64,000 nt of DNA from Clostridiales bacterium. Lineage in GTDB: Bacteria > Bacillota > Clostridia > Lachnospirales > JAQSXR01. A program made the translations under genes and the position numbers. Of this stretch, positions 34,668 through 61,859 are shown piece after piece. The notes beneath the pieces were generated by a model. The model was not told the origin of the DNA. It ran no database searches and saw nothing but the letters and a program-made list of their open reading frames with translations. Each line of letters opens with the position of its first letter. Within the stretch, counting starts at the first letter, position 1. The stretch covers positions 372,001 to 436,000 of the forward strand of contig JAQSXR010000003.1 of the NCBI GenBank assembly GCA_029256575.1, in the 5' to 3' direction.

Positions 34668-34965
34668 AAAAAAGCCCTAAGTTGAAATTATATTCAACTT
34701 AGGGCGAACTATCATGTCCGTGTTACCACCTAATTTCAGAGAAAACTCTGCACTTTGCCAGTACGAAGTGATGCCACTTGATACTGCTTTCCCAATAACG
34801 GTGGAACATCCGATGAAGTCTACTAAGATTTCTCTGTTCGGTCCATAGCTCCAAGACTGCTTCAATATTACTTTCATGAAGACTTACACCAAGCATCTTC
34901 TCTCTGTGATTCCAGTAAATATCTACTATTTCTCATCATAGCTGTTTTGATTTAAATTTCATTTA
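34668..34965 (-). promoter_or_regulatory. T-box leader (probably tRNA-Ala responsive)
   Basis: On the minus strand the leader has the T-box core GGTGGTAACACGG (about 34717-34731), followed by a terminator hairpin GCCCTAAGTTGAA/TTCAACTTAGGGC (34674-34705) and a T run, 36 nt before the synthetase start. Stem I begins with the GATGAGAAATAGTAG signature. A GCU alanine codon in GGAGCTATGGACC is the best specifier candidate. Uncharged tRNA would stabilise the antiterminator and switch on the synthetase. The short frame across it is not a gene. Confidence 0.88.
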
Positions 34966-43007: not shown

Positions 43008-46000
43008 TAAACTTCACCGTGCCTTTATATGATGTCCCCCATGTTACTGAATTATTAATTGTTGCTACTGCACCTTCCATTACATAATCACCTGGTATTA
43101 TGGTTCGTATTCTATACTTTATCGTAAAGGAACTACTACCGTAATGATAGATAAATCGAATACGTTGTTTTTCTTGATTTGCAAGGTACGCTCCATTGCC
43201 GCTAGGCTCATAGATAAATCCTGTATAACGTCCTCCAGAAGGAATATAATCATCTACTATGACAGTTTGATCTGGATTTGCAGTTGGTAACGTTACCTTG
43301 ATTGTAACTAGTTTTTCTGTTTTTGAATACTCCGTAATTGTCTTTTCTACTTTTATCTGATTCTTTGTTATATCCGCTTCCGTGATAGCTCCAACATATT
43401 TTGCACTCACATCAACATTACCTGTTAACAATTTTAGATCTAAATCTTTGTATTGTTCTTTTGAAACAGATATTGAAACATAGCCTAAATTGTCTATGGT
43501 CTTGCGAATCTTTTTACCGTCAAGGGTATATTCAAAAGTAGAATTTGCTTGGGTCAACGGCACAAAGTATTTGATATATACCATTTTTTCACAAAGAAGT
43601 AAATACTCTATTCCACTATTTGTAATTAGTGTCTGGATTACCATTTCAGATTCCTCCGTATTTAGAATCGAAGTGGTAATGGATGCAATTGCAGTGAGAT
43701 AAATAGGATTGTAGTCAATTTCGCTGCTGTATGTTGCTTCCTCCGTTATTTTATCAATTGTTAAATTAGGCTTTATATCCTTCTTATAATATTGAAGAGC
43801 TCCATCGGAATCTCCTATTAATGCTAGCCCAGCAATTAGATAAAGTCTGCTTAATTCGTCTAATTCGACCTCTACTAATAAGTACTTAATGTCATATAAA
43901 ACGGGTTGTTTAAGAGCGGCAAGGCCCATATAGGCTGCAGTCACTTGATTTTCGGTAGCCTCTTTATCTGCTATTATTCTTGATAGGTATTGAATCGTTT
44001 TATCATGATTAAAAAATTCTGGATAAGCAGCACATAACCGAGCAGTAAACTCAACATTTGACGATGAACCATCTAGTTCACCTACTCCGCCATCTCCTCT
44101 GATTATATCAGAGTATGGATAGTTAGCTGTAATCCAGCTAAAGTCGTTTCCTGATTGAGCAAACATTTCTTTCATAAATATTAACGCTACCTTTTCATCC
44201 TTTCGGATTAATCGAGTGCAGGATAAACTATTTAGGATCGCTTGATATTGTTTGTATTCACTATTATAAAAGGTTAGATTCACAGGGTACTGCTTTGCAT
44301 TCAAACTAATTTTATCTCTAAGGTTGTATTCTTTGTATAAAATAGTATTAATTCCTGAATCAATCACCTCAAAGTCTAATAACATAGCATCGGAATAACC
44401 CTGACTCTTTGCTGATAGTTGTATGGTGTATTTGCCAATTGGTAGCTTTCCAAAGTTAGCAACTTCCACTTTACCAACTAAACTATTAATCTTTTGAGTT
44501 ATATCGTTTTCTTTCTTTCCATTTGATACAACAACTTCATATTCTACACCCTCGCCCGTTGTGGCTTGATCTCCTGCGCTCTTAAGGGTCACAGCGACAT
44601 CGTCTCCATAAATATATTGAGAGTTTACAATTGGGGTTATATAGATATCTCTTGTTACAATAATATTCTTTCTATTACTTCCAGCTTGCATATCATCCGT
44701 TAACGCTAAAGCTGTAATTCTCCAACTCGTAATATTATCTGGTAGCTTTAATTCAACAGTAGCATATCCATTTTTATCAGTTTCCACATTCGCAAATATA
44801 GCGGTATCCTCAAAATCACTTCTGACAGAAACCAAATTACCGTCTCCCCCACCCATCTCTGCTCCACCAGATAGAAGTAAATCGTTTGGTATATAGGAAA
44901 CATATTTCATATAGTTACTAGAGTAAGCATGCGCATAGAGTGCACGTAAAATATCATCATCATTATAATAAAGGGCAAAAAGGGCTTCATCTACCATAGA
45001 TACAAGAACATTGGTATTTGGTATTGGTTGGTTAGCCTGATCAACGACTCGAATCGTGACCTTTGCCTTGCTTGATGGAGCATATTTCTCTTTATCTGCC
45101 TCTATCTGGATATCTACTTTTCTTTCCATATAGTTATACCTTACGTAACTCTCACCAACATTAAAGACATGTGTTCCATCAAAAAAGGCACCCGTAATCA
45201 TGAAATTTGGCACTAACTTCTCATTAAAATCTATTTGTATCTGATCCGAAGTAGTAACCTGGAATTCATTTATTCTTTTACTAATTGTATAATAGAAAAA
45301 GGAACCATCTGCTATTTTATCCTTAGCATAATTGTTAGTCAACTTGAATGTAGCAGGAGTATTGCTGTCAAACTTATATTCTTTCGAATTAAGAGTATAT
45401 CTTTCATTGGTATATCCATAATAATCATAAAGTTGTGTGCTATTATAATACGTCTGATCCACCAACGTTAACCTTCCTTGGGAATCTGTATAATGATATG
45501 TGATTTGATAGTAACTACCATCCTCATTGAATAGTGGTAGCTGATCAAATATTGCTTTTCCATCCACTGTACGAATCTCAAAATCACCCATTGAATATCC
45601 TACTGTATCATATCGAAATCTCTCGACATTTTCATTATAAACGGGATCATACACAAAACCTAAGCTTGATTTTACATGTTCATATAACGTAACGGAGGCA
45701 TTTACTACTGTATCAAATGGAGCACCTATATATTTATTCCGGTTGTATATATCATCAGGTGAGGTAATCTGACTATAATCAGTTAGATTCGTATTTAATT
45801 CGATTACATATTTACCATCAACGTCTTTTCCCTCCGATGATTCTAACAATACGTCTCGATTTACCAAATAAAAGTTACCACTTGTACCTATATACTCAGA
45901 CCCTTCGTCATGATTTGATACAGAATACTGAATGGACCTAGGACTTGGCGAGCCATATCCATCCTCGCTAATACTCAAAAAATGTTTGGCGATTCCATCT

Positions 46001-47949
46001 TTATTGGTGACTGCAATTTCATTTTTCATATTTAGATTGATATTGGTGTTATAGCTACTATAATAATAATCAACTTTAAGATTCATATCAGCTGCTGCTG
46101 TTCCATCATAGAGGCTTAGGTCGGTTGTAATTACAATGTCATCCCCTTTATAATCATCATATAGAAGTTGGCTGCTGGACGATTTATTGATGTAAATTGG
46201 CTTTACATATTCCTCAATTCTCACATAATTGGAATTATGTGTTCCAAACTCAGATACCAGGTTTACATAATATGTGTCACTAGACAAATCTTCATAAGGA
46301 ATACTTGCAGTAAATACTCCATCCTTCGATAATTTGATTTTTGTTTTGTAAAAATCTTGATTATTCGCTCGATAGCTTTCCGTTAATGTAATTTCCAACT
46401 CATTTGGAATAGGCGTTCCTTCTCTACGAGGTCTAATAACTCCCCATACTCGAATAGTATCTGAAGGCATGTAACCTCCTCGGTCTGTATAGATATAAGA
46501 AAAGTAATCTTCAAATAAATCTTCACTACTTCCTGAATCGATATTATACACCTCGGTATTATTTGAAATAGTGTCTATAAACTTTTTATTATCCACTGTC
46601 GATATCGAAAGGATTGCATTCGATTGATAATCAATGGTAATACCATTAAAAGTAGCTAACCCACTGGCATTTGTACGCGTTTCATATTTATCACCGTTCA
46701 TCTCAATCTGAACAAAGGCTTGGTTGGCAGGCCCTCCTAGGTTGGCATCATTAACCCAAATTATCGCTTTATCCTCATCACTGGTTGCATATACTCCTAG
46801 GTCTGTAATCTGCATCGTTATAATATCTTCTACCAGATCATTCTCTTTTTGTTTCACAACCAAAGCATAATACCCGAAATCAAGCTTATTTGGTAAAACT
46901 ATTTTTTCTGTATAATTATCGGAAGCCAAGTTTATTGTTATATCAAAATTATGAATTAATGTCATCTCTAATTGATTAAGAGAAAGATTCATTTTATCCT
47001 CTTCAACAAAATTACTTAAATATTCCTTATAATCTTGCGCGGAATTGAATTGATAAATTTCACCTTTATATTTATCCTTAGAATTGTTGGAAGTGAGCAC
47101 TGTTATTACAGGAAGGTCATTTGTAGTATAGGAATGAGTCCCTTCAAAGGCAAAATTAAAGTAAGTATCGTCGTCTTCTGGTCGTGTCTCAAATTCAAAC
47201 GTATAATCTTCTCCTAATTGATCCCCTGCTGAATTCTTTAGGGTACTTTTTATGGTAACTTTATAGGCTTGCCCATTTTCCAATCCGGTATGGGTTAATA
47301 CATAAGTGGAATTATATCTTTTTACTTCAAACTCTACACTTGGTTCAAACACAACATTTTTCTTAATCTCATCAATTTCAACATCTGGGCTAGAAAAAGT
47401 AATCTCAATACCAGTCATGTTAGACATATAGGTAGAACCATTTGTTGGATATGACTCAAGAATTCGAAAGGTTCCTTCTGTCTGAAAAGCCCATGATTTG
47501 CTTATTCTACCATCCTGGCCCTGCTCCAAAATATTAAACACTTCATTATCCTTGAAAGGTTCAGCAGCAGTTAGAAGAAACTCGTTTTTCTTTATCTCTT
47601 CCACATCGTACTTCATCTCTGGAGATATCTTAATAATATTTTTTATTTCCTTTACAGTTGTATTTTGTTTCATAACAATATGAAATTGGGTATCTTTTGC
47701 TACCCCCTTAGCCATTAACTTAGTCGGTGTAATGGATACCGTTTTATATTCAAAAGTAGTATCTTCAAGTATTGTATCATCCAAGGTTTTTGGTTCAATA
47801 ATATTCTTATCCTTTGCAAAGCTAAGCCCTATCAACAGGCATATAGAAGCAACTGCAAGAATAGAAACCAATAGCGCTATCTTATACTTCTTACAGATAT
47901 TCTTCATTTTTGTAAATATAATATTTTCCCTATTATTCTTTTTAATCAT
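43000..47949 (-). CDS. Bacterial alpha-2-macroglobulin-like protein without thioester
   Basis: 1649 aa, the largest gene here. One N-terminal membrane segment (IALLVSILAVASICLLIGLS), a Big_5/Ig-like domain (about 155-255, ending YTFEFETRP), MG2-type domain (SYIYTDRGGYMPSDTIRVWG near 480), bait-region-like middle, and the A2M core (GYATVELKLPDNITSWRITA, near 1095). The C-terminal half has the alpha/alpha-toroid region, but no CxEQ thioester is present. Bacterial relatives trap attacking proteases at the envelope. GGGGAGG precedes the ATG. Translationally coupled to the Memo-family gene. Confidence 0.88.
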   Translation of the reverse strand: MIKKNNRENIIFTKMKNICKKYKIALLVSILAVASICLLIGLSFAKDKNIIEPKTLDDTILEDTTFEYKTVSITPTKLMAKGVAKDTQFHIVMKQNTTVKEIKNIIKISPEMKYDVEEIKKNEFLLTAAEPFKDNEVFNILEQGQDGRISKSWAFQTEGTFRILESYPTNGSTYMSNMTGIEITFSSPDVEIDEIKKNVVFEPSVEFEVKRYNSTYVLTHTGLENGQAYKVTIKSTLKNSAGDQLGEDYTFEFETRPEDDDTYFNFAFEGTHSYTTNDLPVITVLTSNNSKDKYKGEIYQFNSAQDYKEYLSNFVEEDKMNLSLNQLEMTLIHNFDITINLASDNYTEKIVLPNKLDFGYYALVVKQKENDLVEDIITMQITDLGVYATSDEDKAIIWVNDANLGGPANQAFVQIEMNGDKYETRTNASGLATFNGITIDYQSNAILSISTVDNKKFIDTISNNTEVYNIDSGSSEDLFEDYFSYIYTDRGGYMPSDTIRVWGVIRPRREGTPIPNELEITLTESYRANNQDFYKTKIKLSKDGVFTASIPYEDLSSDTYYVNLVSEFGTHNSNYVRIEEYVKPIYINKSSSSQLLYDDYKGDDIVITTDLSLYDGTAAADMNLKVDYYYSSYNTNINLNMKNEIAVTNKDGIAKHFLSISEDGYGSPSPRSIQYSVSNHDEGSEYIGTSGNFYLVNRDVLLESSEGKDVDGKYVIELNTNLTDYSQITSPDDIYNRNKYIGAPFDTVVNASVTLYEHVKSSLGFVYDPVYNENVERFRYDTVGYSMGDFEIRTVDGKAIFDQLPLFNEDGSYYQITYHYTDSQGRLTLVDQTYYNSTQLYDYYGYTNERYTLNSKEYKFDSNTPATFKLTNNYAKDKIADGSFFYYTISKRINEFQVTTSDQIQIDFNEKLVPNFMITGAFFDGTHVFNVGESYVRYNYMERKVDIQIEADKEKYAPSSKAKVTIRVVDQANQPIPNTNVLVSMVDEALFALYYNDDDILRALYAHAYSSNYMKYVSYIPNDLLLSGGAEMGGGDGNLVSVRSDFEDTAIFANVETDKNGYATVELKLPDNITSWRITALALTDDMQAGSNRKNIIVTRDIYITPIVNSQYIYGDDVAVTLKSAGDQATTGEGVEYEVVVSNGKKENDITQKINSLVGKVEVANFGKLPIGKYTIQLSAKSQGYSDAMLLDFEVIDSGINTILYKEYNLRDKISLNAKQYPVNLTFYNSEYKQYQAILNSLSCTRLIRKDEKVALIFMKEMFAQSGNDFSWITANYPYSDIIRGDGGVGELDGSSSNVEFTARLCAAYPEFFNHDKTIQYLSRIIADKEATENQVTAAYMGLAALKQPVLYDIKYLLVEVELDELSRLYLIAGLALIGDSDGALQYYKKDIKPNLTIDKITEEATYSSEIDYNPIYLTAIASITTSILNTEESEMVIQTLITNSGIEYLLLCEKMVYIKYFVPLTQANSTFEYTLDGKKIRKTIDNLGYVSISVSKEQYKDLDLKLLTGNVDVSAKYVGAITEADITKNQIKVEKTITEYSKTEKLVTIKVTLPTANPDQTVIVDDYIPSGGRYTGFIYEPSGNGAYLANQEKQRIRFIYHYGSSSFTIKYRIRTIIPGDYVMEGAVATINNSVTWGTSYKGTVKFSE

Positions 47950-50996: not shown

Positions 50997-52037
50997 TTAC
51001 TCCCCATAAATGATATCTTCTAAAGCAATCCGATTCGCTGATAAATCCGGTACTAACACTGCCATCCCTCTAACTTCACTTGCTGTATAGGTTCCCTTCA
51101 TCGGAAGAGAGTATGTTCCTACATCATCTACTCCCATTAATGCAACCGAAGTTGCCATGCTTATAATCTGCCCATTACTTAGATCAGTAGTGACGAGCGG
51201 GAATATAACATTGATCAAATCAAGTATTTCTGAAATACCTAACCCTTTTATTTTATCAAAAACAGCAGTTATAACATGTCTTTGTCTCTCTGTTCTTTCA
51301 TAGTCTGAATTCCCAATACAGCGAATTCTAGAATATGCCAACGCCAAAGAGCCATCCATATACACCATTCCTTCTGACAAACCTTTAAAGCCCATCCCAG
51401 TTAGGTGAGCTGCTTCTTCTGCATTAAGTTTAATATCGATACCACCAATCCGATTAATTACTTCTTGAAATCCTGTAAAATCGACTTCTATATTCCCATC
51501 AATATGTACTTGGAAATTCTTATCGATCGTTGCATCGAGCAGGTCCATTCCACCAAATACATACGCAGCATTGATACGATTATCACTATATCCAGGTATT
51601 TGTACATACATATCCCGAAGGAGTGATGTAATCTTAATTGTATCATTTCTTTTATTAATTGTTGCAATCATCATACAATCAGCCCTTGCTCTTGGCTGAC
51701 CTACTCTTCTATCTTGACCTATTAATAATATGTTAATAATCTTCTTATCCTTTAGTAAGCTACCATCGGCAGGCCATATTATATCTTTATAATTAACCTC
51801 TTCATTTGTGATTATGGCTTCTTCATTTTCAATGCCTGAAACATTTGTTGATTCATCGATCTCAAAGTATTCTTCTTCAGGTGGGATTACGACAAATGCT
51901 TTTGGACGGTTTATCAAATTTAATTTAGAATTTATATAAGCATAAGTTCCTATAACAATAACAGCTAATATAGCGCAAATGCCTATTAATATTTTTATCC
52001 AAGTAGGTAAATTCTTAATAAAATCTTTATTCATCAT
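50997..52037 (-). CDS. LytR-CpsA-Psr (LCP) family cell-wall glycopolymer ligase
   Basis: 346 aa with a membrane segment at about 15-33 and an extracytoplasmic LCP domain from residue 100: INILLIGQDRR, RADCMMIATINK, SLLRDMYVQIPG, NRINAAYVFGG and LAYSRIR. The conserved Asp and Arg residues of the pyrophosphate-lipid site are present. LCP enzymes transfer polymers from undecaprenyl pyrophosphate to peptidoglycan or protein. It lies just downstream of the response regulator and may belong to the same surface locus. The start may be either of two adjacent ATGs. Confidence 0.92.
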   Translation of the reverse strand: MMNKDFIKNLPTWIKILIGICAILAVIVIGTYAYINSKLNLINRPKAFVVIPPEEEYFEIDESTNVSGIENEEAIITNEEVNYKDIIWPADGSLLKDKKIINILLIGQDRRVGQPRARADCMMIATINKRNDTIKITSLLRDMYVQIPGYSDNRINAAYVFGGMDLLDATIDKNFQVHIDGNIEVDFTGFQEVINRIGGIDIKLNAEEAAHLTGMGFKGLSEGMVYMDGSLALAYSRIRCIGNSDYERTERQRHVITAVFDKIKGLGISEILDLINVIFPLVTTDLSNGQIISMATSVALMGVDDVGTYSLPMKGTYTASEVRGMAVLVPDLSANRIALEDIIYGE

Positions 52038-52076
52038 TCTATTATTTACCTCTCTTTCTAACTATTGTAAAGCAAA

Positions 52077-52703
52077 TTACCCAACCCTTGTAAATCCTTT
52101 CGAAAAAGCATACAAAGCAGCCTGTGTTCTATCTGTTAGTTCTAGTTTCGCAAGCACTTGGCTGACATGTTTTTTAACTGTATATTCCGTTATAAACAGT
52201 TTCTTTGCGATATCTTTATTGCATAGCCCTTTGCCTAATTCTATTAATACCTCTTGTTCTCTAGGCGATAATACATCCAATATCCCTTCCTGAGAAGATA
52301 CCTTCATCATTTCCTCCAAAATTCCAGGGTCGTAATATTTTCTTCCGTTATACACCAATCTAACTGCATATAACAATTCTTCTGGCAATGCTTCTTTCAG
52401 AACATAACCATGTGCCCCTACCTCCTCAGCTCTTCTAAAATCCTGTTCATCTGCTGAAGAAGTTAGCACTATAAATTTACTAATGATACTATTCTTTTTA
52501 CTTTTTTCAATAATATCTAACCCATATTCATTTCCTAATCTTAGGTCCACTAGTACAACGTCTGGCTGTTGTTTTTTAATTATCTCAATTGCTTCTTTGA
52601 TATTACTTGCTTCCCCAATGACCTCCATATCATCTTCTAAAGCTAGAACAAATGCTAACCCTTTGCGTACTAGTGGATGGTCATCAATTAATATTATCTT
52701 CAT
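52077..52703 (-). CDS. NarL/LuxR-family response regulator
   Basis: 208 aa. Receiver domain with DDHPLVRKGL, phospho-acceptor Asp in VVLVDLRLGN near residue 52, and VLKEA with the conserved Lys near 102. LuxR-type helix-turn-helix LSPREQEVLIELGKGLCNKD then YTVKKHVSQVLAKL. GGAGGG is upstream, and the ATG overlaps the kinase stop as ATGA. Partner of the histidine kinase at 52700-54424; probably controls the secreted-protein locus upstream of it. Confidence 0.93.
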   Translation of the reverse strand: MKIILIDDHPLVRKGLAFVLALEDDMEVIGEASNIKEAIEIIKKQQPDVVLVDLRLGNEYGLDIIEKSKKNSIISKFIVLTSSADEQDFRRAEEVGAHGYVLKEALPEELLYAVRLVYNGRKYYDPGILEEMMKVSSQEGILDVLSPREQEVLIELGKGLCNKDIAKKLFITEYTVKKHVSQVLAKLELTDRTQAALYAFSKGFTRVG

Positions 52704-54424
52704 ACAACAATTCCCTCCTGTTGAACATTTATCAAATCATTATTTAACGATATTTTAATTTGAATTACAGTACCAACCTCAATTTGACTTTTAATATCAA
52801 TTATTCCATTAAAAGAATCAACTATATTTTTGATATTAGAGATTCCAAGTCCTTTTTGATCCTCTATATCTTCTTTATTTAGTATAAAACCTATACCATC
52901 GTCAGTAATATTTATGCTGATTCTTTCTCTCTTTATATTTAAAACCAATTGTATACTTCCACATTTTCCATGTCGGATTGCATTCCCACATGCTTCTCGA
53001 ATAATACGAGTGATCCCCTGTTTTAAAGGCATTGGCAATAGTCCCTCATCCCCGTGAATCTTAAAATCGATTGCAACATGATGTAGTTTCGATATACTAT
53101 CTAGAAAATCCTTAAGGGTAACTTTTAACGTCTTTTCACCCTTCTTTTTAGAACTCAACTTATATATAGAGTTTCTAAGCTCCTGCATTGCAAGATTTGA
53201 AGTTTCACTCAATTCAACCATATATTCCTTAAGCTCTTCTTTTGTAATATCTCTCCATTTACCTAACACTCCATAAATTGCATATGAAATACTGAAAAGT
53301 CTTTGTGAGACACTGTCGTGTATTTCGTTGGCAATTCGATTCTGCTCTTCCATTACAATCAGGTTATTCTCTATTTCTTCAAGATTAAATCGTTCCAATG
53401 TAACAGCACTTAATCCTGATAAAAATTCTAAAAGTCTAATATTTTGTACCTTTTTATCATCATTCAATTGATCCATTTGTTCTATCGCGATTAACCCAGA
53501 AGGGTAACCAGGCGTTAGGATTGGAATTGTTAATAGTTCTATGTTAGCTATAACACGCGTTTGAACACTCACCCCTAAGCATTGTTGACTTAGTTTATGA
53601 AGTTCTATATTTATTTCTTGCTGCAAGGTTAATTTTAAGTTTTTATTCGATTTAATAATATATTCTTCTTCTTTCAAACCTGGTAACCAGAAAAAACACA
53701 AATTACTACTAGTTAACTTAGCTGTGTAATCAGCTAATGTCTCAAAAAGTTTACCTTTTGTACAATGATTATTTAATGCTTCAATAATTTGATATAAAGA
53801 CATAATGTAATTAATAGATTCTTGTTTCTGCATATTGGATACCTTTAAAGCATCGGTCTGAATATACAATTTTTTTGTTAAATTAGATAGAAGTTGTACT
53901 GCTAACGTAATAAGTAAAAAAACGAGCACTATATTGTAATTATTCATAACTATAGTTATAATATTTAAATTCTTTGAATTAAACAAAAAAAATGACATTG
54001 TAGAACCAGCTGTTAAGTAGAATATTAGATTCATCCAACAAAAATAAGTAGGTAAGTAACAGGCAGCAACTAGTATTGGATTCAAAGCATACCATATAAA
54101 TGGACTCAACAATCCTCCTGTTGGTAACAATAACAAAGCAATTCCAAAGGTTTCTATCAATAGTAACGTCTTTAATATTCCTTTGTTATCCATATGTTTA
54201 ATATATAAATCATTAATAATAGTTGTCAAAATAAAAAGAGAACCGATCACTCCTAGTTTGAAAAAAATGATTGAATAAGGCCTACCCGTCATATAAACAA
54301 AGGAAGTTAATATCCATGACAGGAATCGATAGGTATATATAATCTTTACTCCTTCTGAGACCGGCTTATTACTTATATGAATATTCGATATTTTATAAAA
54401 TATTGATTTCAACTTACATATCAA
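52700..54424 (-). CDS. Membrane sensor histidine kinase, HisKA_3 type
   Basis: Up to 574 aa. Six or so N-terminal hydrophobic segments (about 30-190), a GAF-like middle region (about 205-350), then NEIHDSVSQRLFSISYAI with the phospho-His of the NarX/LiaS/DesK group, and ATPase motifs ACGNAIRHGKC (N box), TDDGIGF (G1) and GLGISNIKNI (G2). The start is uncertain: a TTG at 54424 overlaps the DUF5305 stop, and a second TTG lies 12 nt downstream. Coupled on one side to DUF5305 and on the other to its response regulator. Confidence 0.9.
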   Translation of the reverse strand: MICKLKSIFYKISNIHISNKPVSEGVKIIYTYRFLSWILTSFVYMTGRPYSIIFFKLGVIGSLFILTTIINDLYIKHMDNKGILKTLLLIETFGIALLLLPTGGLLSPFIWYALNPILVAACYLPTYFCWMNLIFYLTAGSTMSFFLFNSKNLNIITIVMNNYNIVLVFLLITLAVQLLSNLTKKLYIQTDALKVSNMQKQESINYIMSLYQIIEALNNHCTKGKLFETLADYTAKLTSSNLCFFWLPGLKEEEYIIKSNKNLKLTLQQEINIELHKLSQQCLGVSVQTRVIANIELLTIPILTPGYPSGLIAIEQMDQLNDDKKVQNIRLLEFLSGLSAVTLERFNLEEIENNLIVMEEQNRIANEIHDSVSQRLFSISYAIYGVLGKWRDITKEELKEYMVELSETSNLAMQELRNSIYKLSSKKKGEKTLKVTLKDFLDSISKLHHVAIDFKIHGDEGLLPMPLKQGITRIIREACGNAIRHGKCGSIQLVLNIKRERISINITDDGIGFILNKEDIEDQKGLGISNIKNIVDSFNGIIDIKSQIEVGTVIQIKISLNNDLINVQQEGIVV

Positions 54425-55529
54425 GAGCTAATTCACTTCCCTTTAGCAACAGTTTCTCTGCAATACTATAATAATAAATATTAGAAGTGCCTAAAATATA
54501 GTAAAAAACACTTCCTGTCTTCGTATCTGCAAACTTAAATATAGGTTCTTCTTTTTCATCAGCTATTTGTAGCAAAGTATTAAAGTTTTTTAAGCCAAGT
54601 TTAGGTAAAATTTCAAAACTAATTTCATCTGCAACCTCTATAATTCTACCTTTATGTTTTTTATCGATCATATCTATTTCAGTAACTTCATTCTTTATAT
54701 GTTTATATTTCTTTGTAATTTTAATAAATAGTGGAATAAAAGTAAGAATTGAGATTAAACTAAAACTATATCGAGCTCCTATAATCGAGACATTATGATT
54801 CAGAAAATGAAAGCTCTGGTCAATTATATTAACTTCTTCTATTGGTATTATATCAACGAATTCTTTTTCTGAAGATTCTCCAGCATATTTAATATATTGA
54901 CTCGTTAATTCAAATGGTATCTCTAAATCGCTGTTAAATGTACGTATTTCTTCACCATTTTCCTGATATATTTTCCCGCTAATTTTTTGTCTAATTACTA
55001 ATAAATAATTAACAGGCCTTGCTAAAGTTTCTTCTTCAATTGTTTCAATTAAATCAACAATTTTTTTAACATCTATGCTGAATTCCTCTTGTAACAAAGA
55101 ATGATTAACTCCTTCTGACATAATCGTTTGATTTGCGATTAATTCATATTCTCTTTCCCACAAATCCTTAGCAACAATGCTATAGACTATACCTGCACTT
55201 CCTTCAACTTTAATTGATTTCTCAGAATGAATACCTGCATCTAACGTAATGATTAATTGCTCTGTCAAACTATTAAATATAACACCCTCTGGTACTATTA
55301 CTCCACCTTCCGGATACAATACACTTGGTTTTACCTTTGCAGCATAATGATATGCTTTCTTTTGCTCAAGTATATTTTGAGTTATCTTATTCTCTTTCCT
55401 TAAAGGTTGTCTGATTGCTTTACAGGCAAAAAATGTGGAGGTTACCCACACTATTGCTATCATAACTATTATAACTTTCTGGTAATTGCTCTTACCCCAT
55501 TGCAATATTCTAGTTAAAGTACCTTTCAT
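54414..55529 (-). CDS. DUF5305-type membrane protein
   Basis: 371 aa with a membrane segment near the N-terminus (VIIVMIAIVWVTSTFFA), a large external beta domain (about 45-230, with EGGVIVPEGVIFNSLTEQLI), a second membrane segment (about 245-270) and a cytoplasmic tail. Layout and setting match my memory of DUF5305, which in haloarchaea and clostridia sits beside SipW/ER-type signal peptidases and TasA-like secreted proteins. Function unknown. It lies 16 nt after the acidic-repeat gene and overlaps the kinase. Confidence 0.7.
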   Translation of the reverse strand: MKGTLTRILQWGKSNYQKVIIVMIAIVWVTSTFFACKAIRQPLRKENKITQNILEQKKAYHYAAKVKPSVLYPEGGVIVPEGVIFNSLTEQLIITLDAGIHSEKSIKVEGSAGIVYSIVAKDLWEREYELIANQTIMSEGVNHSLLQEEFSIDVKKIVDLIETIEEETLARPVNYLLVIRQKISGKIYQENGEEIRTFNSDLEIPFELTSQYIKYAGESSEKEFVDIIPIEEVNIIDQSFHFLNHNVSIIGARYSFSLISILTFIPLFIKITKKYKHIKNEVTEIDMIDKKHKGRIIEVADEISFEILPKLGLKNFNTLLQIADEKEEPIFKFADTKTGSVFYYILGTSNIYYYSIAEKLLLKGSELALDM

Positions 55530-55545
55530 TATTTAGTCCCCCTGT

Positions 55546-56376
55546 TTATTTACTTTTTATTACTTTTTCATCAATAAAAGTTTCTACAATAATATTTATA
55601 TTCTTATTGATTGTTGAAGACCCACCAATCCACGATGCAGTAATTGTAACTTCAAAAGTTTTATCTTCAATCTCTTCATCAAAATTACAAGGAACCTCCC
55701 AGATTTCTCCTGGTTTAATAAGTACATTTTTAAAATTAAATAAACTACTGTTTTGAGAACTGTGGAATCCATTATTCTCACTAATATCAATAAATATAAA
55801 ATTATCCATATTATTATTTATATAAAATCCATTGCTATCTATATGGACGGCTGTTTCTTTCGAATTTATCTCTTCGCTTACTAAATTATTAACTTGGTTT
55901 TCTTCCGTAATTTTGTCTTTGACTATATCTTTGTCTTTGTCTTTATCTTCGTCTTTGACTTTATCTTCGTCTTTGTCTTTGTCTTTGTCTTTATCTTCGT
56001 CTTCGTCTTTATCTTCGTCTTCGTCTTCGTCTTCGTCTTTATCTTCGTCTTTGTCTTTATTTTCGTCTTTGTCTTTATCTTCGTCTTTGTCTTTATCTTC
56101 GTCTTTGACTTTATCTTCGTCTTTGACCTTATCTTCGTCTTTGTCTTTATCTTCGTCTTTATCCTTATCTTTTACCGTCTTTGTAACAGATATTAATTTA
56201 GTCACTTTAATTTCAATATCTTCTGGTATTGCTATAAGTGCTTTTTCAGAGGAATCAATCACAATTTTTAATTTACTTTCTATCTTTGTTGTGGTATAAC
56301 TGGTTACTTTTGTACAAATTCCTATTGATAGCGCTAATACTGCCATCAGTATAACTTTACGATTAATTGTATTCAT
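55546..56376 (-). CDS. Secreted protein with long Asp/Lys/Glu repeat, probable SipW-type substrate
   Basis: 276 aa from the ATG at 56376 (GAGGGG upstream). An N-terminal hydrophobic segment (VILMAVLALSIGICT) is followed by LKIVIDSSEKALIAI, which parallels FIVSNTDDALLAI at the same place in the TasA-like protein. Residues about 68-153 are almost wholly K, D and E in DKDKDE-type units. The C-terminal 100 residues form a beta domain ending in a plausible Ig-like fold (FEVTITASWIGGSSTINKNI). The charged tract could be a wall-spanning or calcium-binding stalk. Family not recognised. Confidence 0.75.
   Translation of the reverse strand: MNTINRKVILMAVLALSIGICTKVTSYTTTKIESKLKIVIDSSEKALIAIPEDIEIKVTKLISVTKTVKDKDKDEDKDKDEDKVKDEDKVKDEDKDKDEDKDKDENKDKDEDKDEDEDEDEDKDEDEDKDKDKDKDEDKVKDEDKDKDKDIVKDKITEENQVNNLVSEEINSKETAVHIDSNGFYINNNMDNFIFIDISENNGFHSSQNSSLFNFKNVLIKPGEIWEVPCNFDEEIEDKTFEVTITASWIGGSSTINKNINIIVETFIDEKVIKSK
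55915..56175. repeat. Hexanucleotide repeat tract within the acidic-protein gene
   Basis: About 260 bp built of TCTTTG, TCTTTA and TCTTCG hexamers on the plus strand, encoding Lys-Asp and Glu-Asp pairs on the minus strand. All units keep the reading frame, so copy-number change would lengthen or shorten the protein without breaking it. Confidence 0.95.
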
Positions 56377-56545
56377 TCTTAATTCCCCTCTCATAACAAA
56401 CTTATATATGTATGTACAATGAATCATCTTCTAGAAATATATCCAAATTGCTATATATTTATACCAATAATTGGATTTATGATGAAATTTAATTAGTAAA
56501 AGAGATATACTAAAAAACAAATAACATATTCCAAACTTATGATGT

Positions 56546-57673
56546 CTAATTAAATAGAGGAATTTTTCTGCAGATTTTACGAAATAAACTCCGTATTGCT
56601 TTAATTGTTTTTCTACGCATACTACCGTCTATCAATGGATATAGCATTAAGGGAAGGCCAGGTATGATTGATACAATTACCAATGCTAACCAATAGCTTT
56701 TTAAAGCTAAATAATAAATCAGCTTACTAGGTAAGAATGGATAAAACATTCCAACATTAATGATTGTATTGTATTTACCAATAGCAGATGCCTTTAGTTG
56801 CATTTCTACTTCTAGAATGTTACCTTGTTTAAGTGTTGTTAGAGATTTGTTAAATGAGATTTGATCATCATTTGATGTAATAGTTGCAACAATCGGAAAT
56901 ATACCCTTATTACTAAGCATAGTTAATTGTTTTGTTCTCTCTTCACCTAATTTTATGATACCAACACTACTTCCCATTATTACTCCATTTCCTTCATTTG
57001 AAATCTCGTATGGAAGATTAATTCTCTGATACGTTGTCAACATCGTTGCCCCCATAATAATTGAAAGCGTTAATCCACCAAAAAAGTAAACTAATTGTAT
57101 CTCTAAACCATTCTTTTTTTTCTTCTTTTTCTTCTTTTTCTTCTTGCTATGCATAATTTCACTCACCCCAATAATAGTAGCGAGTAATATAGCAATCAAA
57201 GGCATGGTATATGGGTTTGATTGAAATTGTTCCATCCAAAGAGGAATATATCCTATTAGTGGTATTTTCATCGGCTTATTATGAATCGTTATTACTTTAC
57301 TAACAATCCAATCTCGTTGGATAGGTCCAGTATCTCCTGATGCCTGATCTGTATATTCATTTGCATCTCCTTGAGTAATATATCCATTTTTTTCATCGCC
57401 ACCAATGATTCGATGAACAATCCACCCTTTCGTAGATAATGCACCTTCCTTAACTTTAAATACAACAATATCTCCAATATTGACTCTAGTCTTATCAGGA
57501 AGATGTTTAATTATAAGCATATCACTTCGTTGAAACAGTGGATACATGCTGTTGGAGCGAACCGATGATAATAGCATAGGCTTATCCCATATGGCTGAGG
57601 TAACCGCCGCAGTCAGCACAATGCTAACAATAATATATAAAATAATATCAATAAATTTAGATAATTTTCGCAT
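56546..57673 (-). CDS. SipW/ER-type signal peptidase I with C-terminal extension
   Basis: 375 aa from the ATG at 57673 (GGGAGGG upstream). N-terminal membrane anchor, then the S26 catalytic motifs: SVRSNSMYPLF with the nucleophile Ser, and GWIVHRIIGG with His in place of the Lys of ordinary bacterial enzymes, the ER/archaeal/SipW type. ITQGDANEYTD follows. After residue 160 come three more membrane segments, a run of 11-12 lysines, and an external beta domain, roughly doubling the family length. It should process the TasA-like protein just upstream and perhaps the acidic-repeat protein downstream. Confidence 0.9.
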   Translation of the reverse strand: MRKLSKFIDIILYIIVSIVLTAAVTSAIWDKPMLLSSVRSNSMYPLFQRSDMLIIKHLPDKTRVNIGDIVVFKVKEGALSTKGWIVHRIIGGDEKNGYITQGDANEYTDQASGDTGPIQRDWIVSKVITIHNKPMKIPLIGYIPLWMEQFQSNPYTMPLIAILLATIIGVSEIMHSKKKKKKKKKKKNGLEIQLVYFFGGLTLSIIMGATMLTTYQRINLPYEISNEGNGVIMGSSVGIIKLGEERTKQLTMLSNKGIFPIVATITSNDDQISFNKSLTTLKQGNILEVEMQLKASAIGKYNTIINVGMFYPFLPSKLIYYLALKSYWLALVIVSIIPGLPLMLYPLIDGSMRRKTIKAIRSLFRKICRKIPLFN

Positions 57674-57783
57674 AAACAACCCTCCCATAATATATTGTAT
57701 TATGCTTATACAAAAAAGTAATTACTCCAAAGACTACACTATATGGTACATTAGTATACCCTTATTACAAACGTGCCAATTAA

Positions 57784-57821
57784 AAAAGGTGATCTCTAAA
57801 TATTTATAGAGACCACCTTTA
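57784..57821 (-). terminator. Strong terminator between the TasA-like gene and the signal peptidase
   Basis: Arms TAAAGGTG, TCTCTA and their complements around ATAAATATT, followed by TTTTTT on the minus strand, 20 nt after the TasA-like stop. It would let the secreted protein be made in excess over the peptidase. Confidence 0.85.
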
Positions 57822-57841
57822 TATTTATGAAACCTAATCTT

Positions 57842-58432
57842 TTATGGAGTTGGAGTTACAACAGGTGCTACTTCTTTTGCTTCTACAACTATATTGAATG
57901 ATTTTTCACCTTTTGCAATTGTTCTTTGCATAGTATCGATTTTTGAATCAATGTTAATTGATGCACCTGGTTCTAATGTGAATACTACCTTAGTACCGTA
58001 TGCGCCTGTATGACGAGAAGCTACACTAACCCAATTATCACTTGTTTCAGTTTTCAAATATACTTTAGAGCCAATATTTGGTTCTGGTTTTGCACTATCT
58101 ATTGGTACGTAAACACTTACTTCAACTGTTTTTTCTGAATTGTTTTTTACATTAAATAAATCTTCCCAAGTATATACACTACCTGATTGAACACCAAATT
58201 CTGCTCCGTCTTTACCTTTTGCCCAGTTAATAACTAATTCATTTGCAGTAGAACCAGTAGTGTAACCAGCAGCTGCATGATTACCAGCTTTGATTGCTAA
58301 GAGAGCATCATCCGTATTTGATACGATAAAGCTCGCACCATTTGTTACTATTGCACTTGTATAAGCCATTGCTGCCATCAAACTAGCCATGCATAATAAT
58401 GTTACAACTAATAAAATACTTTTTCTTTTCAT
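57842..58432 (-). CDS. TasA-like SipW-dependent secreted protein
   Basis: 196 aa from the ATG at 58432 with AAAAGGAGG upstream; a longer frame to 58477 lacks a site. A SipW-type signal (ILLVVTLLCMASLMAAMAYT) leads into FIVSNTDDALLAIKAGN, typical of TasA/camelysin and archaeal relatives. The rest is a beta-rich domain (TVEVSVYVPIDSA, YGTKVVFTLEPGASINIDSK) ending in a Pro-Thr tail (VAPVVTPTP). Such proteins form matrix fibres in Bacillus biofilms. First gene of the locus, with its own terminator, followed by its likely peptidase. Confidence 0.82.
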   Translation of the reverse strand: MKRKSILLVVTLLCMASLMAAMAYTSAIVTNGASFIVSNTDDALLAIKAGNHAAAGYTTGSTANELVINWAKGKDGAEFGVQSGSVYTWEDLFNVKNNSEKTVEVSVYVPIDSAKPEPNIGSKVYLKTETSDNWVSVASRHTGAYGTKVVFTLEPGASINIDSKIDTMQRTIAKGEKSFNIVVEAKEVAPVVTPTP

Positions 58433-58520: not shown

Positions 58521-58627
58521 CTAGTATAGTTTGGTACTCTCCAATAATAGAATTCGTTAACTACTCCTTAGTCCCATACGTCCACCTCTTTTGAACTATA
58601 CTGGTATACTATGGTACCATATGTATA
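58521..58627. promoter_or_regulatory. Dyad-rich region upstream of the TasA-like gene
   Basis: AGTATAGTTTGGTAC (58523-58537) and GAACTATACTGGTATAC (58593-58609) form an inverted pair 60 bp apart, followed by the palindrome ATGGTACCAT (58611-58620). Candidate operator for the response regulator of the locus; no promoter hexamers are assigned. Confidence 0.4.
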
Positions 58628-58779: not shown

Positions 58780-59526
58780 TTACTCAATACCAACCACATA
58801 TTCAATCCCATTATCCACAGCATATTGTTCCGCAACGGATCCTTCACTAATAATTAATGTTAATTGATCGCAGTCATAGAAATTTCCTTTTCCTATTGTT
58901 TTTACACCTTGTGGAATAAACACTTCTTCCAAATCTTCACAATCAACAAATGCAAAATCATCAATTGTAACCAATCCTAATGGCAACTTTACGGATGTTA
59001 AACTTGAGCTTTTTGAAAAAGCATATTTACCGATCTGCTCAATGCTTTTTGGGAAATCAACTGATAAGAGGAAAGAACAAGCACTAAATGAGGAATCACC
59101 TATTTGGGTTACACTTTCTGGTATTTCAATATATTTTAATTTTTTGCAATATAGAAATGTATTATCTCTAATTTCAATCAACCCAAACGGCAATTCAACC
59201 TCTTCTAAATTCATACATATACTAAATGCTCCTACCCCTATATTAGTAACGTTATGTGGTATTTGTACTTTTTTTAATTTTCTATGGCCTTCAAATGCAT
59301 AATTATCAATAGAGACTACTGGCATAAACCAAATATTATTAGGTACTTTAACATCTGGTTCATTCCCTTGGTACTTTGTTATAGTTACTTTCCAATTATT
59401 TATTTCATAATCATACTTGCTATTTATGTTTATCGTATAGCATACTAATCCAACTAGTCCCAAACCAACAATTATTAGAGAGAGATACTTAATTTTTATA
59501 TTTTTTAGTGTATGAATAATTTTCAA
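58780..59526 (-). CDS. Membrane-anchored leucine-rich-repeat (LRR_5/BspA-type) protein, copy B2
   Basis: 248 aa from a TTG at 59526 with GAGGAG upstream, one nucleotide after the previous stop. One membrane segment (YLSLIIVGLGLVGLVCYTI) and then about seven 23-residue repeats of the treponemal/BspA type (for example LEEVELPFGLIEIRDNTFLY, VTQIGDSSFSACSFL), ending in the LRR_5 cap LIISEGSVAEQYAVDNGIEY. Such repeats usually mediate surface binding. Closely related to the gene at 60276; the last 45 residues are nearly identical. Confidence 0.85.
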   Translation of the reverse strand: MKIIHTLKNIKIKYLSLIIVGLGLVGLVCYTININSKYDYEINNWKVTITKYQGNEPDVKVPNNIWFMPVVSIDNYAFEGHRKLKKVQIPHNVTNIGVGAFSICMNLEEVELPFGLIEIRDNTFLYCKKLKYIEIPESVTQIGDSSFSACSFLLSVDFPKSIEQIGKYAFSKSSSLTSVKLPLGLVTIDDFAFVDCEDLEEVFIPQGVKTIGKGNFYDCDQLTLIISEGSVAEQYAVDNGIEYVVGIE

Positions 59527-59527
59527 G

Positions 59528-60249
59528 TTAATTTTGCTCCTCTCGTATCACTACTTTGATTCCATTTTTTATTGCATACTTTTCCGCTTCAGATCCTTGC
59601 TCAGCAATTATAGTTAAATTTCTACAGCTATTAAATGCCCCCTCATCTATTGTTACTACACTTGGAGGTATATATAATTCAGTCAAACTATAACATTGAA
59701 AAAAAGCACTCCCCTCAATCTTTGTTACTGAAACAGGAATATTAATTAATTCTAAATTATAACATTGTGCAAATGTACTCTTCTTAATAGCTTTCACTTG
59801 ATTCGGTATATTTATTTCACGCAACTTAATACAGCCAGCAAATGCACCATATCCTATATATGATACTGTATCGGGTAGTTTTAATTTTGAAAGAGAAAAA
59901 CAATTGGAGAATACATCGTCACCAATATATTCTAAAGAATTTGGTAAATTTATTTCTTCCAATGAAAAACATGTGCCAAATGCGTAATTACCGATATTTA
60001 TTATGGTTTCGGGTAATATTACTTTTTTTAATTGATAACAACCGAGAAATGAACTTGGACCAATCTCAGTAAGTTCATTTGGTAATCTTTCCCTTTATAA
60101 GCTAATATTGAGGCTTCTCCTTGTGTTATCTTATACTCGTATAACTTGCTTTTATGAAATAGAATAATACAAAATAGCATTAATAATAGTGCAACTAGAA
60201 TTAAAAATAAAGGTTTTATTCGTTTATGTATGATAATATTTACCTTCAC
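59528..60249 (-). pseudogene. Leucine-rich-repeat gene, copy A2, broken by deletion and frameshift
   Basis: The GTG start at 60249 (GGAGGT upstream) gives a membrane segment and YEYKITQGEASILAYKGK, then the frame runs to a stop after 73 codons. In the adjacent frame the DNA continues RLPNELTEIGPSSFLGCYQL and on through the rest of the protein to 59528. Compared with the intact copy at 61038, about 34 codons are missing at the break. The C-terminal 144 codons remain open but have no good start. Confidence 0.85.
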
Positions 60250-60275
60250 TCCACTACCTCCGAAATTTTATATAC

Positions 60276-61031
60276 TTATTCAATACCAACCACATATTCA
60301 ATCCCATTGTCCACAGCATATTGTTCCGCAATGGAACCCTCACTTATAATTAATGTTAATTTATCGCAGTCATAAAAGTTTCCTTTACCTATTGTTTTTA
60401 CACCTTGTGGGATGAACACTTCATCCAAATCTTCACTATCAACAAAAGCAAAATTATCAATTGTAATCAATCCAATAGGCAATTTTACGGATATTAAACT
60501 TGAACATTCTGAAAAGGCATATTCACCTATACTCTCTAAGCTTTTGGGGAAATTTACTGTCGTTAGGGAATCGCAAACACTAAATGATGAATTACCTATA
60601 TTAGCTACACCTTCAGGTATATCAATTTCTCTCAATTCAAGACAGAAAAAAAATGTATTATCTTTAATTTCCCTTAGTCCTAAAGGTAATTTAATCTCTT
60701 CTAAATGCATACATGCACTAAATGCACCTACTCCAATACTAGTAACATTAATTGATATTCGTATTTTATTTAATTTCTTAAGCCCTTCAAATGCATAGTC
60801 ATCAATAGAGACAACTGGCATAAACCAAATATTATTTGGCATTTTAACTTCCGATTCATTGCCGTGATATCTAGTAATATTGACTTTCCAATTATTAATT
60901 TCATAATCATACTTGCAATTCAAGTTAATCGTATAGAACCCGAATCCAACTAGTCCTAACGCAATAATTAGAGTGATACATATATTTTTTATTTTTATAT
61001 TCATACTTTTTAATTTGTTAATAAAGCTCAA
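60276..61031 (-). CDS. Membrane-anchored leucine-rich-repeat protein, copy B1
   Basis: 251 aa from a TTG at 61031, 6 nt after the previous stop, with GGGGAG about 10 nt upstream. Membrane segment ICITLIIALGLVGFGFYTI, then LRR_5 repeats (LEEIKLPLGLREIKDNTFFF, VANIGNSSFSVCDSL) and the cap LIISEGSIAEQYAVDNGIEY. Paralogue of the gene at 58780. Confidence 0.85.
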   Translation of the reverse strand: MSFINKLKSMNIKIKNICITLIIALGLVGFGFYTINLNCKYDYEINNWKVNITRYHGNESEVKMPNNIWFMPVVSIDDYAFEGLKKLNKIRISINVTSIGVGAFSACMHLEEIKLPLGLREIKDNTFFFCLELREIDIPEGVANIGNSSFSVCDSLTTVNFPKSLESIGEYAFSECSSLISVKLPIGLITIDNFAFVDSEDLDEVFIPQGVKTIGKGNFYDCDKLTLIISEGSIAEQYAVDNGIEYVVGIE

Positions 61032-61037
61032 GTCAAA

Positions 61038-61859
61038 TCACTCCCCTCGTTTAATTACTTTGATTCCATTTTCAATTGCATGCTTTTCAGCTTCAGATCC
61101 CTTTTCTGCAATTATCGTTAGATTCCAACAGTTATTAAATGCTTTTTCATCTATTGTAACTACACTTGGTGGTATATATAATTCTGTTAAACTATAACAC
61201 TGAAAAAATGCGTTAGCATCAATTTTTGTCACAGAATCAGGTATTTGAACTAACTCTAAATTATAGCATTGTGCGAATGTACTTCTATTTATGGTGGTTA
61301 TTTGGTTCGGAATATTTATTTCACGTAACCTTATACAGCCAATAAATGCAGCTAAACCTATATCTGTTACCGTTTCAGGTATTTTTATTTTTGATAAAGA
61401 AATGCAATTATAAAAAGCCCCATCATCAATGTATGTCAAAGATTTAGGAAGATCTATTTCTTCTAACGCTAGACACGATCCAAACGCATACTTGCCTATA
61501 GTTTTAATAGTGTCGTTAAATACTAACTTAATTAATTTAGGGCATCCGTGAAAAGAATATGCTCCAGTATAAGTAAGTCCAGACGGAAATATTACTTCAG
61601 TTACATTAATATTACTTTTGAAAGCTCGCTCTGCAATTGTTGTTACTGGTTTATTTCTAAAATAGGATGGGATGATAACTATACTTTCTTCCCCCTTATA
61701 TTTTATAACTGAAGATTCGCCTTGTATTATCTTGTATTCGTATAGGTTAGTTTTATGTATTATTAATACACAAAACACTACAATTATTAGTGTAACAAAA
61801 AATAAAGATAAAACTGTTAATTGTTTACATTTGATAATCTCTCTAAAATTTATTTTCAC
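61038..61859 (-). CDS. Membrane-anchored leucine-rich-repeat protein, copy A1
   Basis: 273 aa from a GTG at 61859 with GGAGGAAG upstream. One membrane segment (VLSLFFVTLIIVVFCVLII), then YKGEESIVIIPSYFRNKPVT and eight or so LRR_5 repeats (LTYIDDGAFYNCISLSKIKI, ITTINRSTFAQCYNLELVQI), capped by LTIIAEKGSEAEKHAIENGI. Intact partner of the broken copy at 59528. Begins 36 nt after the 604-aa protein gene. Confidence 0.87.
   Translation of the reverse strand: MKINFREIIKCKQLTVLSLFFVTLIIVVFCVLIIHKTNLYEYKIIQGESSVIKYKGEESIVIIPSYFRNKPVTTIAERAFKSNINVTEVIFPSGLTYTGAYSFHGCPKLIKLVFNDTIKTIGKYAFGSCLALEEIDLPKSLTYIDDGAFYNCISLSKIKIPETVTDIGLAAFIGCIRLREINIPNQITTINRSTFAQCYNLELVQIPDSVTKIDANAFFQCYSLTELYIPPSVVTIDEKAFNNCWNLTIIAEKGSEAEKHAIENGIKVIKRGE

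What the first reader, a model, noticed from the sequence alone, without database searches (positions are those of the whole stretch)
50997..58432. Candidate self-regulated SipW/TasA-like secretion and surface system
In order of transcription: TasA-like protein, SipW/ER-type peptidase of double length, a second probable substrate with a charged stalk, DUF5305, a histidine kinase, its response regulator, and an LCP ligase. Spacing and overlaps tie DUF5305, kinase and regulator together. It resembles the Bacillus tapA-sipW-tasA matrix locus but with archaeal-type parts, its own two-component system and a possible wall-attachment enzyme. I know of no described system with this composition.
Basis: partly seen in the sequence, partly recalled or inferred. 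Interest (0 to 1): 0.7.

Follow-up and report, generated by a model that had tools for sequence, protein, structure and literature searches.

The report
Archaeal-type pilus cluster with own switch
A Clostridia-type bacterium carries a six-gene set, its core shared with salt-loving archaea, that most likely builds thin protein fibres on the cell surface using a signal-cutting enzyme with a built-in chaperone-like domain, and it brings its own sensor-regulator pair.

Summary
The genes are real and correctly placed. The first six (SUB1, long ER/SipW-type signal peptidase SPP, SUB2, DUF5305, histidine kinase, response regulator) form a conserved unit. The LCP gene does not belong: 0 of 57 bacterial DUF5305 loci have it, nor does the closest relative (Herbinix MAG). 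The same genome holds a four-gene paralogue (substrate, SPP, substrate, DUF5305) in exactly the order of haloarchaeal clusters. Most telling, a haloarchaeal pilin with a solved structure (PDB 9P0A) is encoded beside a homologous long SPP and DUF5305, and the SUB1 family profile matches it (E 1e-13). The extra half of SPP is predicted to be a membrane-tethered PapD/ASH-like domain, the fold of pilus chaperones. SUB1 and SUB2 share their mature N-terminus, as TasA and TapA share a donor strand. The kinase is a dedicated orthologue, and a 19-bp inverted repeat occurs only twice in the 3.1-Mb genome, upstream of SUB1 and of SPP. Best reading: a bacterial, self-regulated version of the haloarchaeal pilin/SPP/DUF5305 system. 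A SipW fibre operon with its own two-component system is already published (C. perfringens sipW-bsaABCRSD), so 'no described system' is only partly true. No fibre or regulation was shown by experiment.

The parts
57842..58432 (-). SUB1, probable pilus/fibre major subunit (196 aa after the start at 58432); SipW-like signal peptide followed by the motif AYTSAIVTNGASFIVSNTDDALLAI
   Evidence: DUF1102 24.9 bits, cut-off 22.2; family profile A4 matches haloarchaeal pilin PDB 9p0a_C, E 1.1e-13; 54% identical orthologue in Herbinix L162
57785..57820 (-). intrinsic terminator after SUB1 (14-bp stem, U tract), so SUB1 is probably its own transcription unit or is partly read through
   Evidence: -20.6 kcal/mol; z -5.3; 0 of 200 shuffles as stable
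58603..58621 (-). inverted-repeat site TATGGTACCATAGTATACC (GGTA-N8-TACC) upstream of SUB1: candidate response-regulator site
   Evidence: the pattern occurs only twice in the 3.1-Mb genome at up to 2 mismatches; 0 of 200 shuffles of the two upstream regions share so good a 19-mer
57742..57760 (+). second copy, TATGGTACATTAGTATACC, upstream of SPP (opposite orientation)
   Evidence: a copy with 3 mismatches lies in the Herbinix SPP/SUB1 intergenic region (1 of 500 shuffles)
56546..57688 (-). SPP, long ER/SipW-type signal peptidase (Ser47, His92, Asp108 invariant) with TM - poly-Lys - TM - PapD/ASH-like ectodomain (about 219-318) - TM; likely start at 57673
   Evidence: TIGR02228 74.3 bits; human SEC11C E 1.5e-16; AlphaFold model with ectodomain pLDDT about 89; VIA Z 10.5 to SEC11C for the catalytic part, and Z 8.1 to a HYDIN-like domain and 6-7 to Caf1M, CupB2 and YadV chaperones for the ectodomain; same architecture in archaea
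55546..56376 (-). SUB2, second substrate: mature N-terminus as in SUB1, an 88-residue D/K/E stalk, then a beta-rich end; candidate initiator or anchor subunit (TapA-like role)
   Evidence: shared N-terminal segment with SUB1, 0 of 200 shuffles; orthologue in L162
54414..55529 (-). DUF5305: TM - Ig/FnIII-like ectodomain - TM - small cytoplasmic alpha/beta domain; candidate assembly platform and/or status reporter to the kinase
   Evidence: PF17231 36 bits; AlphaFold pLDDT 84.8; VIA best Z 8.2, a common fold
52700..54424 (-). histidine kinase (multi-TM N-terminus, HisKA_3, HATPase), start TTG
   Evidence: near full-length orthologues lie by DUF5305 in relatives; other kinases match only the catalytic part
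52077..52703 (-). NarL-family response regulator
   Evidence: 72% identical in L162; 52-61% in L069, L070, L072, L074, L079
50997..52037 (-). LCP glycopolymer transferase: neighbour, not part of the conserved unit
   Evidence: PF03816 116 bits; absent from 57 other bacterial DUF5305 loci and from L162

Best explanation
The six genes from SUB1 to the response regulator encode a surface-fibre (pilus) system of the kind that haloarchaea encode with a pilin, a long signal peptidase and DUF5305, here under a dedicated two-component system. Proposed working: SUB1 (major subunit) and SUB2 (minor, stalked subunit) go out through Sec with the same kind of signal peptide. SPP cuts them, exposing a shared N-terminal strand. 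The PapD-like domain of SPP, held on the outer membrane face, catches the freshly cut subunits. SUB2 and the Ig-like ectodomain of DUF5305 start and anchor the fibre at the membrane, and SUB1 polymerises by strand exchange. DUF5305, encoded directly ahead of the kinase, reports assembly state or load; the regulator binds a GGTA-N8-TACC repeat and switches on SUB1 and SPP. Shown by sequence: family membership, conserved cluster, homology of SUB1 to a solved pilin, shared N-termini, the unique repeat pair. Predicted by model: the PapD-like and Ig-like folds. Inferred: fibre formation, strand exchange, the chaperone role, DUF5305 as reporter, and which protein binds the repeat.
For: SUB1 profile matches pilin 9p0a_C, E 1.1e-13; the 9P0A gene itself (100% identity over the 163 aa searched) sits in the order pilin, secreted 394-aa protein, type-A SPP, DUF5305. 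Same four-gene order in haloarchaeal plasmids and in the window genome's second copy on contig C56. SPP by DUF5305 in 54 of 57 bacterial and 8 of 8 archaeal loci. Kinase and regulator by type-A clusters in Lederbergia, Clostridiaceae and Bacillota MAGs and phylum relatives; the kinase is a dedicated orthologue. Closest relative L162: all six genes at 43-72% identity, LCP absent. SPP ectodomain PapD/ASH-like. Shared N-termini of SUB1 and SUB2 in 11 of 14 clusters (0 of 200 shuffles each). Repeat pair unique in the genome. Published parallels: BsaR binds the sipW promoter and a terminator follows bsaA in C. perfringens (PMC7395162); TapA and TasA share the donor strand (PMC9674648) and TapA is likened to usher-pathway chaperones (PMC10151520).
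Against: No experiment. Identity between window and archaeal proteins is low (about 20-30%). The PapD-like fold is also that of MSP/ASH domains with no tie to pili, and Z 6-8 is middling by the tool's own note. The paralogue (C56) and its Herbinix counterpart lack the two-component system, and about two thirds of type-B loci lack the kinase, so the switch is optional. The repeat was found in only two bacterial lineages, and nothing ties it directly to this regulator. No structure of SUB1 itself was predicted.
Confidence: 0.66

Rival explanations
1. A dedicated export and anchoring module for non-polymeric surface proteins (adhesin or coat): SPP cuts SUB1 and SUB2, DUF5305 holds them, and no fibre forms.
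For: Some type-B relatives sit beside giant surface-type proteins (L017, L057, L058, L061) and many make several different SipW-type substrates. No fibre has been seen for any bacterial member examined here.
Against: SUB1's family profile matches a protein solved as a pilin, whose own gene lies by SPP and DUF5305. The shared mature N-termini of SUB1 and SUB2 resemble a donor strand.
Confidence: 0.17
2. The two-component system is a neighbour with other targets; SUB1/SPP expression is set by something else.
For: The kinase/regulator pair is missing in C56, L068 and in most type-B loci. The regulator family is large and common.
Against: Operon-like overlap DUF5305-kinase-regulator; DUF5305 directly followed by the kinase also in L070, L155, L156, L157, L159, L162; near full-length kinase orthology only at these loci; repeat pair at SUB1 and SPP only.
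Confidence: 0.12
3. One reading: the LCP enzyme belongs to the system and attaches SUB1 or SUB2 to the wall.
For: LCP starts 39 bp after the regulator on the same strand. One related lineage has a sortase and a transglutaminase after its DUF5305 (L014).
Against: LCP is absent from 57 bacterial loci and from the closest relative. LCP enzymes are known to transfer glycopolymers, not proteins (established knowledge).
Confidence: 0.05

Closest known systems
Haloarchaeal pilin of PDB 9P0A and its gene cluster (NCBIfam has TafA, TafC and TafE models for such fimbriae)
   Same: Pilin-type substrate, type-A long signal peptidase and DUF5305 side by side; SUB1 profile matches the pilin.
   Different: Bacterial host; Sec-type rather than Tat-like signal peptide; dedicated NarL-type two-component system; stalked SUB2; SUB1 is far below the Taf equivalog cut-offs. 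No paper on Taf, DUF5305 or DUF1102 was found in the held library.
Clostridium perfringens sipW-bsaABCRSD (PMC7395162)
   Same: SipW-type peptidase, polymer-forming matrix protein, further secreted proteins and its own two-component system that drives the sipW promoter; terminator after the fibre gene.
   Different: No BsaA-family (TIGR04090) match for SUB1. The passages read mention no DUF5305 and no fused ectodomain.
Bacillus subtilis tapA-sipW-tasA
   Same: SipW-type peptidase with two substrates; TasA and TapA share an N-terminal donor strand (PMC9674648, PMC10151520).
   Different: No TasA/M73 match for SUB1 by sequence. SipW is half the length. The tasA operon is under SinR (PMC9674648) and holds no kinase pair.
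Type-B clusters of the window's order and other Clostridia-type genomes (this work)
   Same: DUF5305, SipW-type peptidase, SipW-type substrates, often an orthologous kinase/regulator.
   Different: Peptidase has about 240 residues of N-terminal multi-TM instead of the C-terminal PapD-like domain.

Membership tests
ER/archaeal (SipW) type signal peptidase I | TIGR02228 above cut-off; Ser/His catalytic pair rather than Ser/Lys | tested here: met
   74.3 bits against cut-off 51.85; S47 and H92 invariant; SEC11C E 1.5e-16
B. subtilis SipW (NF046067 equivalog) | score above the equivalog cut-off | tested here: not met
   43.9 bits against 190
DUF5305 (PF17231) | gathering score | tested here: met
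   36 bits against 29
Haloarchaeal pilin/SPP/DUF5305 clusters | substrate homologous to pilin 9P0A, with type-A SPP and DUF5305 adjacent | tested here: met
TafA/TafE equivalogs | equivalog cut-offs (190 and 155 bits) | tested here: not met
   SUB1 TafE 15.5 bits; no TafA match
TasA/camelysin (PF12389) | Pfam match of the fibre subunit, or sequence match to solved TasA | tested here: not met
   no PF12389 match at E up to 1; no TasA chain in the PDB profile search; fold not compared because no SUB1 model was made
TasA/TapA system | two substrates sharing the mature N-terminal strand | tested here: met
   0 of 200 shuffles
TasA/AbpA-type fibres | donor-strand-complemented filament | not testable with these tools
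   needs cryo-EM or biochemistry
C. perfringens Bsa system | BsaA-family subunit (TIGR04090) | tested here: not met
   no match at E up to 1
C. perfringens Bsa system | two-component system encoded with the SipW operon | tested here: met
PapD-like pilus chaperone (SPP ectodomain) | donor-strand groove with subunit bound | tested here: inconclusive
   fold match only, Z 6-7 to chaperones and up to 8.1 to a HYDIN-like domain

The most novel reading that the evidence does not exclude
A signal peptidase with a built-in pilus chaperone: the enzyme that cuts off the signal peptide also holds the freed subunit by strand complementation and hands it to a DUF5305 platform, whose cytoplasmic end tells a dedicated kinase how assembly is going. 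This one-protein cleave-and-chaperone scheme would be shared by haloarchaea, Archaeoglobi and Firmicutes.
Probability: 0.3. Interest if true: 0.82.

Novelty: new variant of a known kind. Interest (0 to 1): 0.6.

Why it matters
Gram-positive bacteria and archaea lack an outer-membrane usher, so how strand-exchange fibres start and anchor at a single membrane is open. This cluster offers a testable answer: a signal peptidase carrying a chaperone-fold domain plus an anchored DUF5305 platform. It also gives DUF5305, on which no paper was found, a context and a first model; links a solved haloarchaeal pilin (no paper found in the held library) to a wide bacterial family; and shows a core that keeps its subunits, peptidase and DUF5305 while gaining or losing a dedicated regulatory pair.

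Tried and rejected
LCP as a part: rejected (0 of 57 loci; absent in L162). A single seven-gene operon: unlikely (terminator 57820-57785; in L162 SPP is on the other strand). TasA kinship by sequence: no match. Recent transfer from archaea: left open; the SPP tree puts the window copy with L162, L159 and L157 and the C56 copy with Herbinix L068, but the backbone between bacterial and archaeal clades is unresolved. Sensor genes beside every archaeal cluster: seen in the first few loci, but not general in 20 further loci. The repeat in more distant type-A clusters: no convincing copy. Alignment A1 gave no stretch conserved enough for a collection scan; A2 did. DUF5305 fold search: an Ig/FnIII-like sandwich, too common to argue function. 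Literature on TafA/C/E, 9P0A, DUF5305 and DUF1102: nothing in the held library.

Full report
Observation. The seven genes lie on the minus strand at the stated coordinates and belong to the stated families. SUB2, DUF5305, kinase and regulator are packed (gap 16 bp, overlaps 11 and 4 bp). A strong intrinsic terminator separates SUB1 from SPP, so SUB1 is probably its own transcription unit, as expected for a major subunit. Likely starts, judged by ribosome-binding sites, are 58432, 57673 and 56376.

A second copy in the same genome. Contig C56 holds substrate (169 aa), long peptidase (359 aa), substrate (185 aa) and DUF5305 (633 aa) in the same order, with no kinase, regulator or LCP. Its DUF5305 carries a C-terminal MshEN domain (23.6 bits, cut-off 23.1).

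The same set in archaea. Haloarchaeal plasmids hold the identical four-gene order (Halobaculum L063, Halarchaeum L066) or a close one (Natrialba L065). Their peptidases share the full architecture: catalytic domain, TM, basic stretch, TM, ectodomain, a motif like YPxLLPxxxxxxLHxxHPxLA, TM. I call this type A. Archaeoglobi have it too, with clear DUF1102 substrates. In a sample of the phylum of the haloarchaeon G395, 42 of 197 genomes have DUF5305 above cut-off.

The same set in other bacteria. DUF5305 is above cut-off in 20 of 392 genomes of the window's order and 32 of 398 of its phylum. Among 57 bacterial loci, 54 have the peptidase close by and the other 3 lie at contig ends; kinase + regulator accompany 8 of 12 type-A and 15 of 42 type-B loci; LCP accompanies none. 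These loci were found through DUF5305 or type-A SPP, so the figures are conditional on that; type-A SPP without an annotated DUF5305 nearby also occurs (L062, L064). Type B has about 240 residues of N-terminal multi-TM and no ectodomain. Type-A clusters with kinase and regulator occur in Lederbergia panacisoli, Clostridiaceae and unnamed Bacillota (kinase 41-43% identical, regulator 52-61%). The closest relative, a Herbinix MAG, has all six genes (SUB1 54%, SPP 64%, SUB2 51% over 71 aa, DUF5305 43%, kinase 60-63% in two pieces, regulator 72%) and no LCP; it also has a C56-type cluster.

The kinase is dedicated. Searching 22 genomes with it, the DUF5305-adjacent kinase is the top hit where it is on the same stretch, and matches nearly full length (89-419 bits) unless the gene is broken or the contig ends. 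Kinases elsewhere, and in genomes without DUF5305, match only the catalytic part at 69 bits or less.

What the substrates are. The SUB1 family profile finds one natural secreted protein in the PDB: 9p0a_C, named 'Pilin' (E 1.1e-13); the weaker hits are designed or unrelated domains. The residues of that chain shown by the search match 100% a gene in one held haloarchaeal genome, which sits as pilin, 394-aa secreted protein, type-A SPP, DUF5305. Of three near relatives two show the same order in full; in the third (L207) the DUF5305 gene was not called, a weak point of my ORF caller in GC-rich DNA. This pilin matches NCBIfam TafE and TafA below their equivalog cut-offs. SUB1 and SUB2 share about 25 residues after the hydrophobic core in 11 of 14 clusters (0 of 200 shuffles each; one failure is a mis-set window, and the two C56-type clusters are weak). 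In B. subtilis the shared N-terminus of TapA and TasA is the donor strand (PMC9674648), and TapA is likened to usher-pathway chaperones (PMC10151520).

The long peptidase. Profile and model agree that the front half is a SEC11/SipW-type enzyme. The back half (pLDDT about 89) is a PapD/ASH/MSP-like sandwich: best Z 8.1 to a ciliary HYDIN-like domain, 6-7 to Caf1M, CupB2 and YadV pilus chaperones; Pfam gives HYDIN-type Ig at E 0.03, below its cut-off. Fold alone does not prove a chaperone.

Regulation. The pattern TATGGTACNNTAGTATACC occurs twice in the whole genome at up to 2 mismatches: about 170 bp before SUB1 and about 70 bp before SPP, in opposite orientation. Shuffled upstream regions never share as good a 19-mer (0 of 200), and the Herbinix SPP/SUB1 intergenic region holds a 3-mismatch copy (1 of 500). 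The regulator is the natural candidate but was not tested.

Comparison. C. perfringens sipW-bsaABCRSD is a published SipW fibre operon with its own two-component system (PMC7395162), so self-regulation is precedented. New here are the type-A peptidase, DUF5305, the archaeal-type subunits and the tie to a solved pilin. Verdict: a new variant of a known kind.

Noticed in passing
G000:C56, locus L013:7931-12017: Second, archaeal-order four-gene cluster in the same genome; its DUF5305 is fused to an MshEN (GspE N-terminal) domain.
   Followed up: partly
L013:12223-13089: CAP/YkwD-family protein with a SipW-like signal peptide just upstream of that cluster, possibly a further substrate.
   Followed up: no
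L014, L049-L051, L053 (same order, family f2): Type-B clusters run on into transglutaminase, sortase, T2SSF-like, pilin-like and T2SSE-like genes, as if two fibre systems were joined (domains checked in L014 only).
   Followed up: partly
L017, L057, L058, L061: Type-B clusters without a kinase sit beside giant (1300-2500 aa) surface-type proteins.
   Followed up: no
L162:3876-5602: The kinase gene of the Herbinix relative is broken in the assembly (319 + 251 aa).
   Followed up: no
58780-61859: Row of BspA-type leucine-rich-repeat genes just upstream of SUB1, most with an N-terminal hydrophobic segment.
   Followed up: no
43000-47949: 1649-aa secreted alpha-2-macroglobulin-like protein (my reading of the sequence; no family search run).
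   Followed up: no
55832-56299 (+ strand): Open frames opposite the D/K/E stalk are mirror images of the repeat, not genes.
   Followed up: partly
34697-34948 (-): T-box leader (121.5 bits).
   Followed up: no
L176, L178, L182, L187, L188, L190, L192, L205: Haloarchaeal SPP/DUF5305 clusters often have a small HTH-like gene (motif LFDxLSNxRRRYxxHxxK) close by.
   Followed up: no
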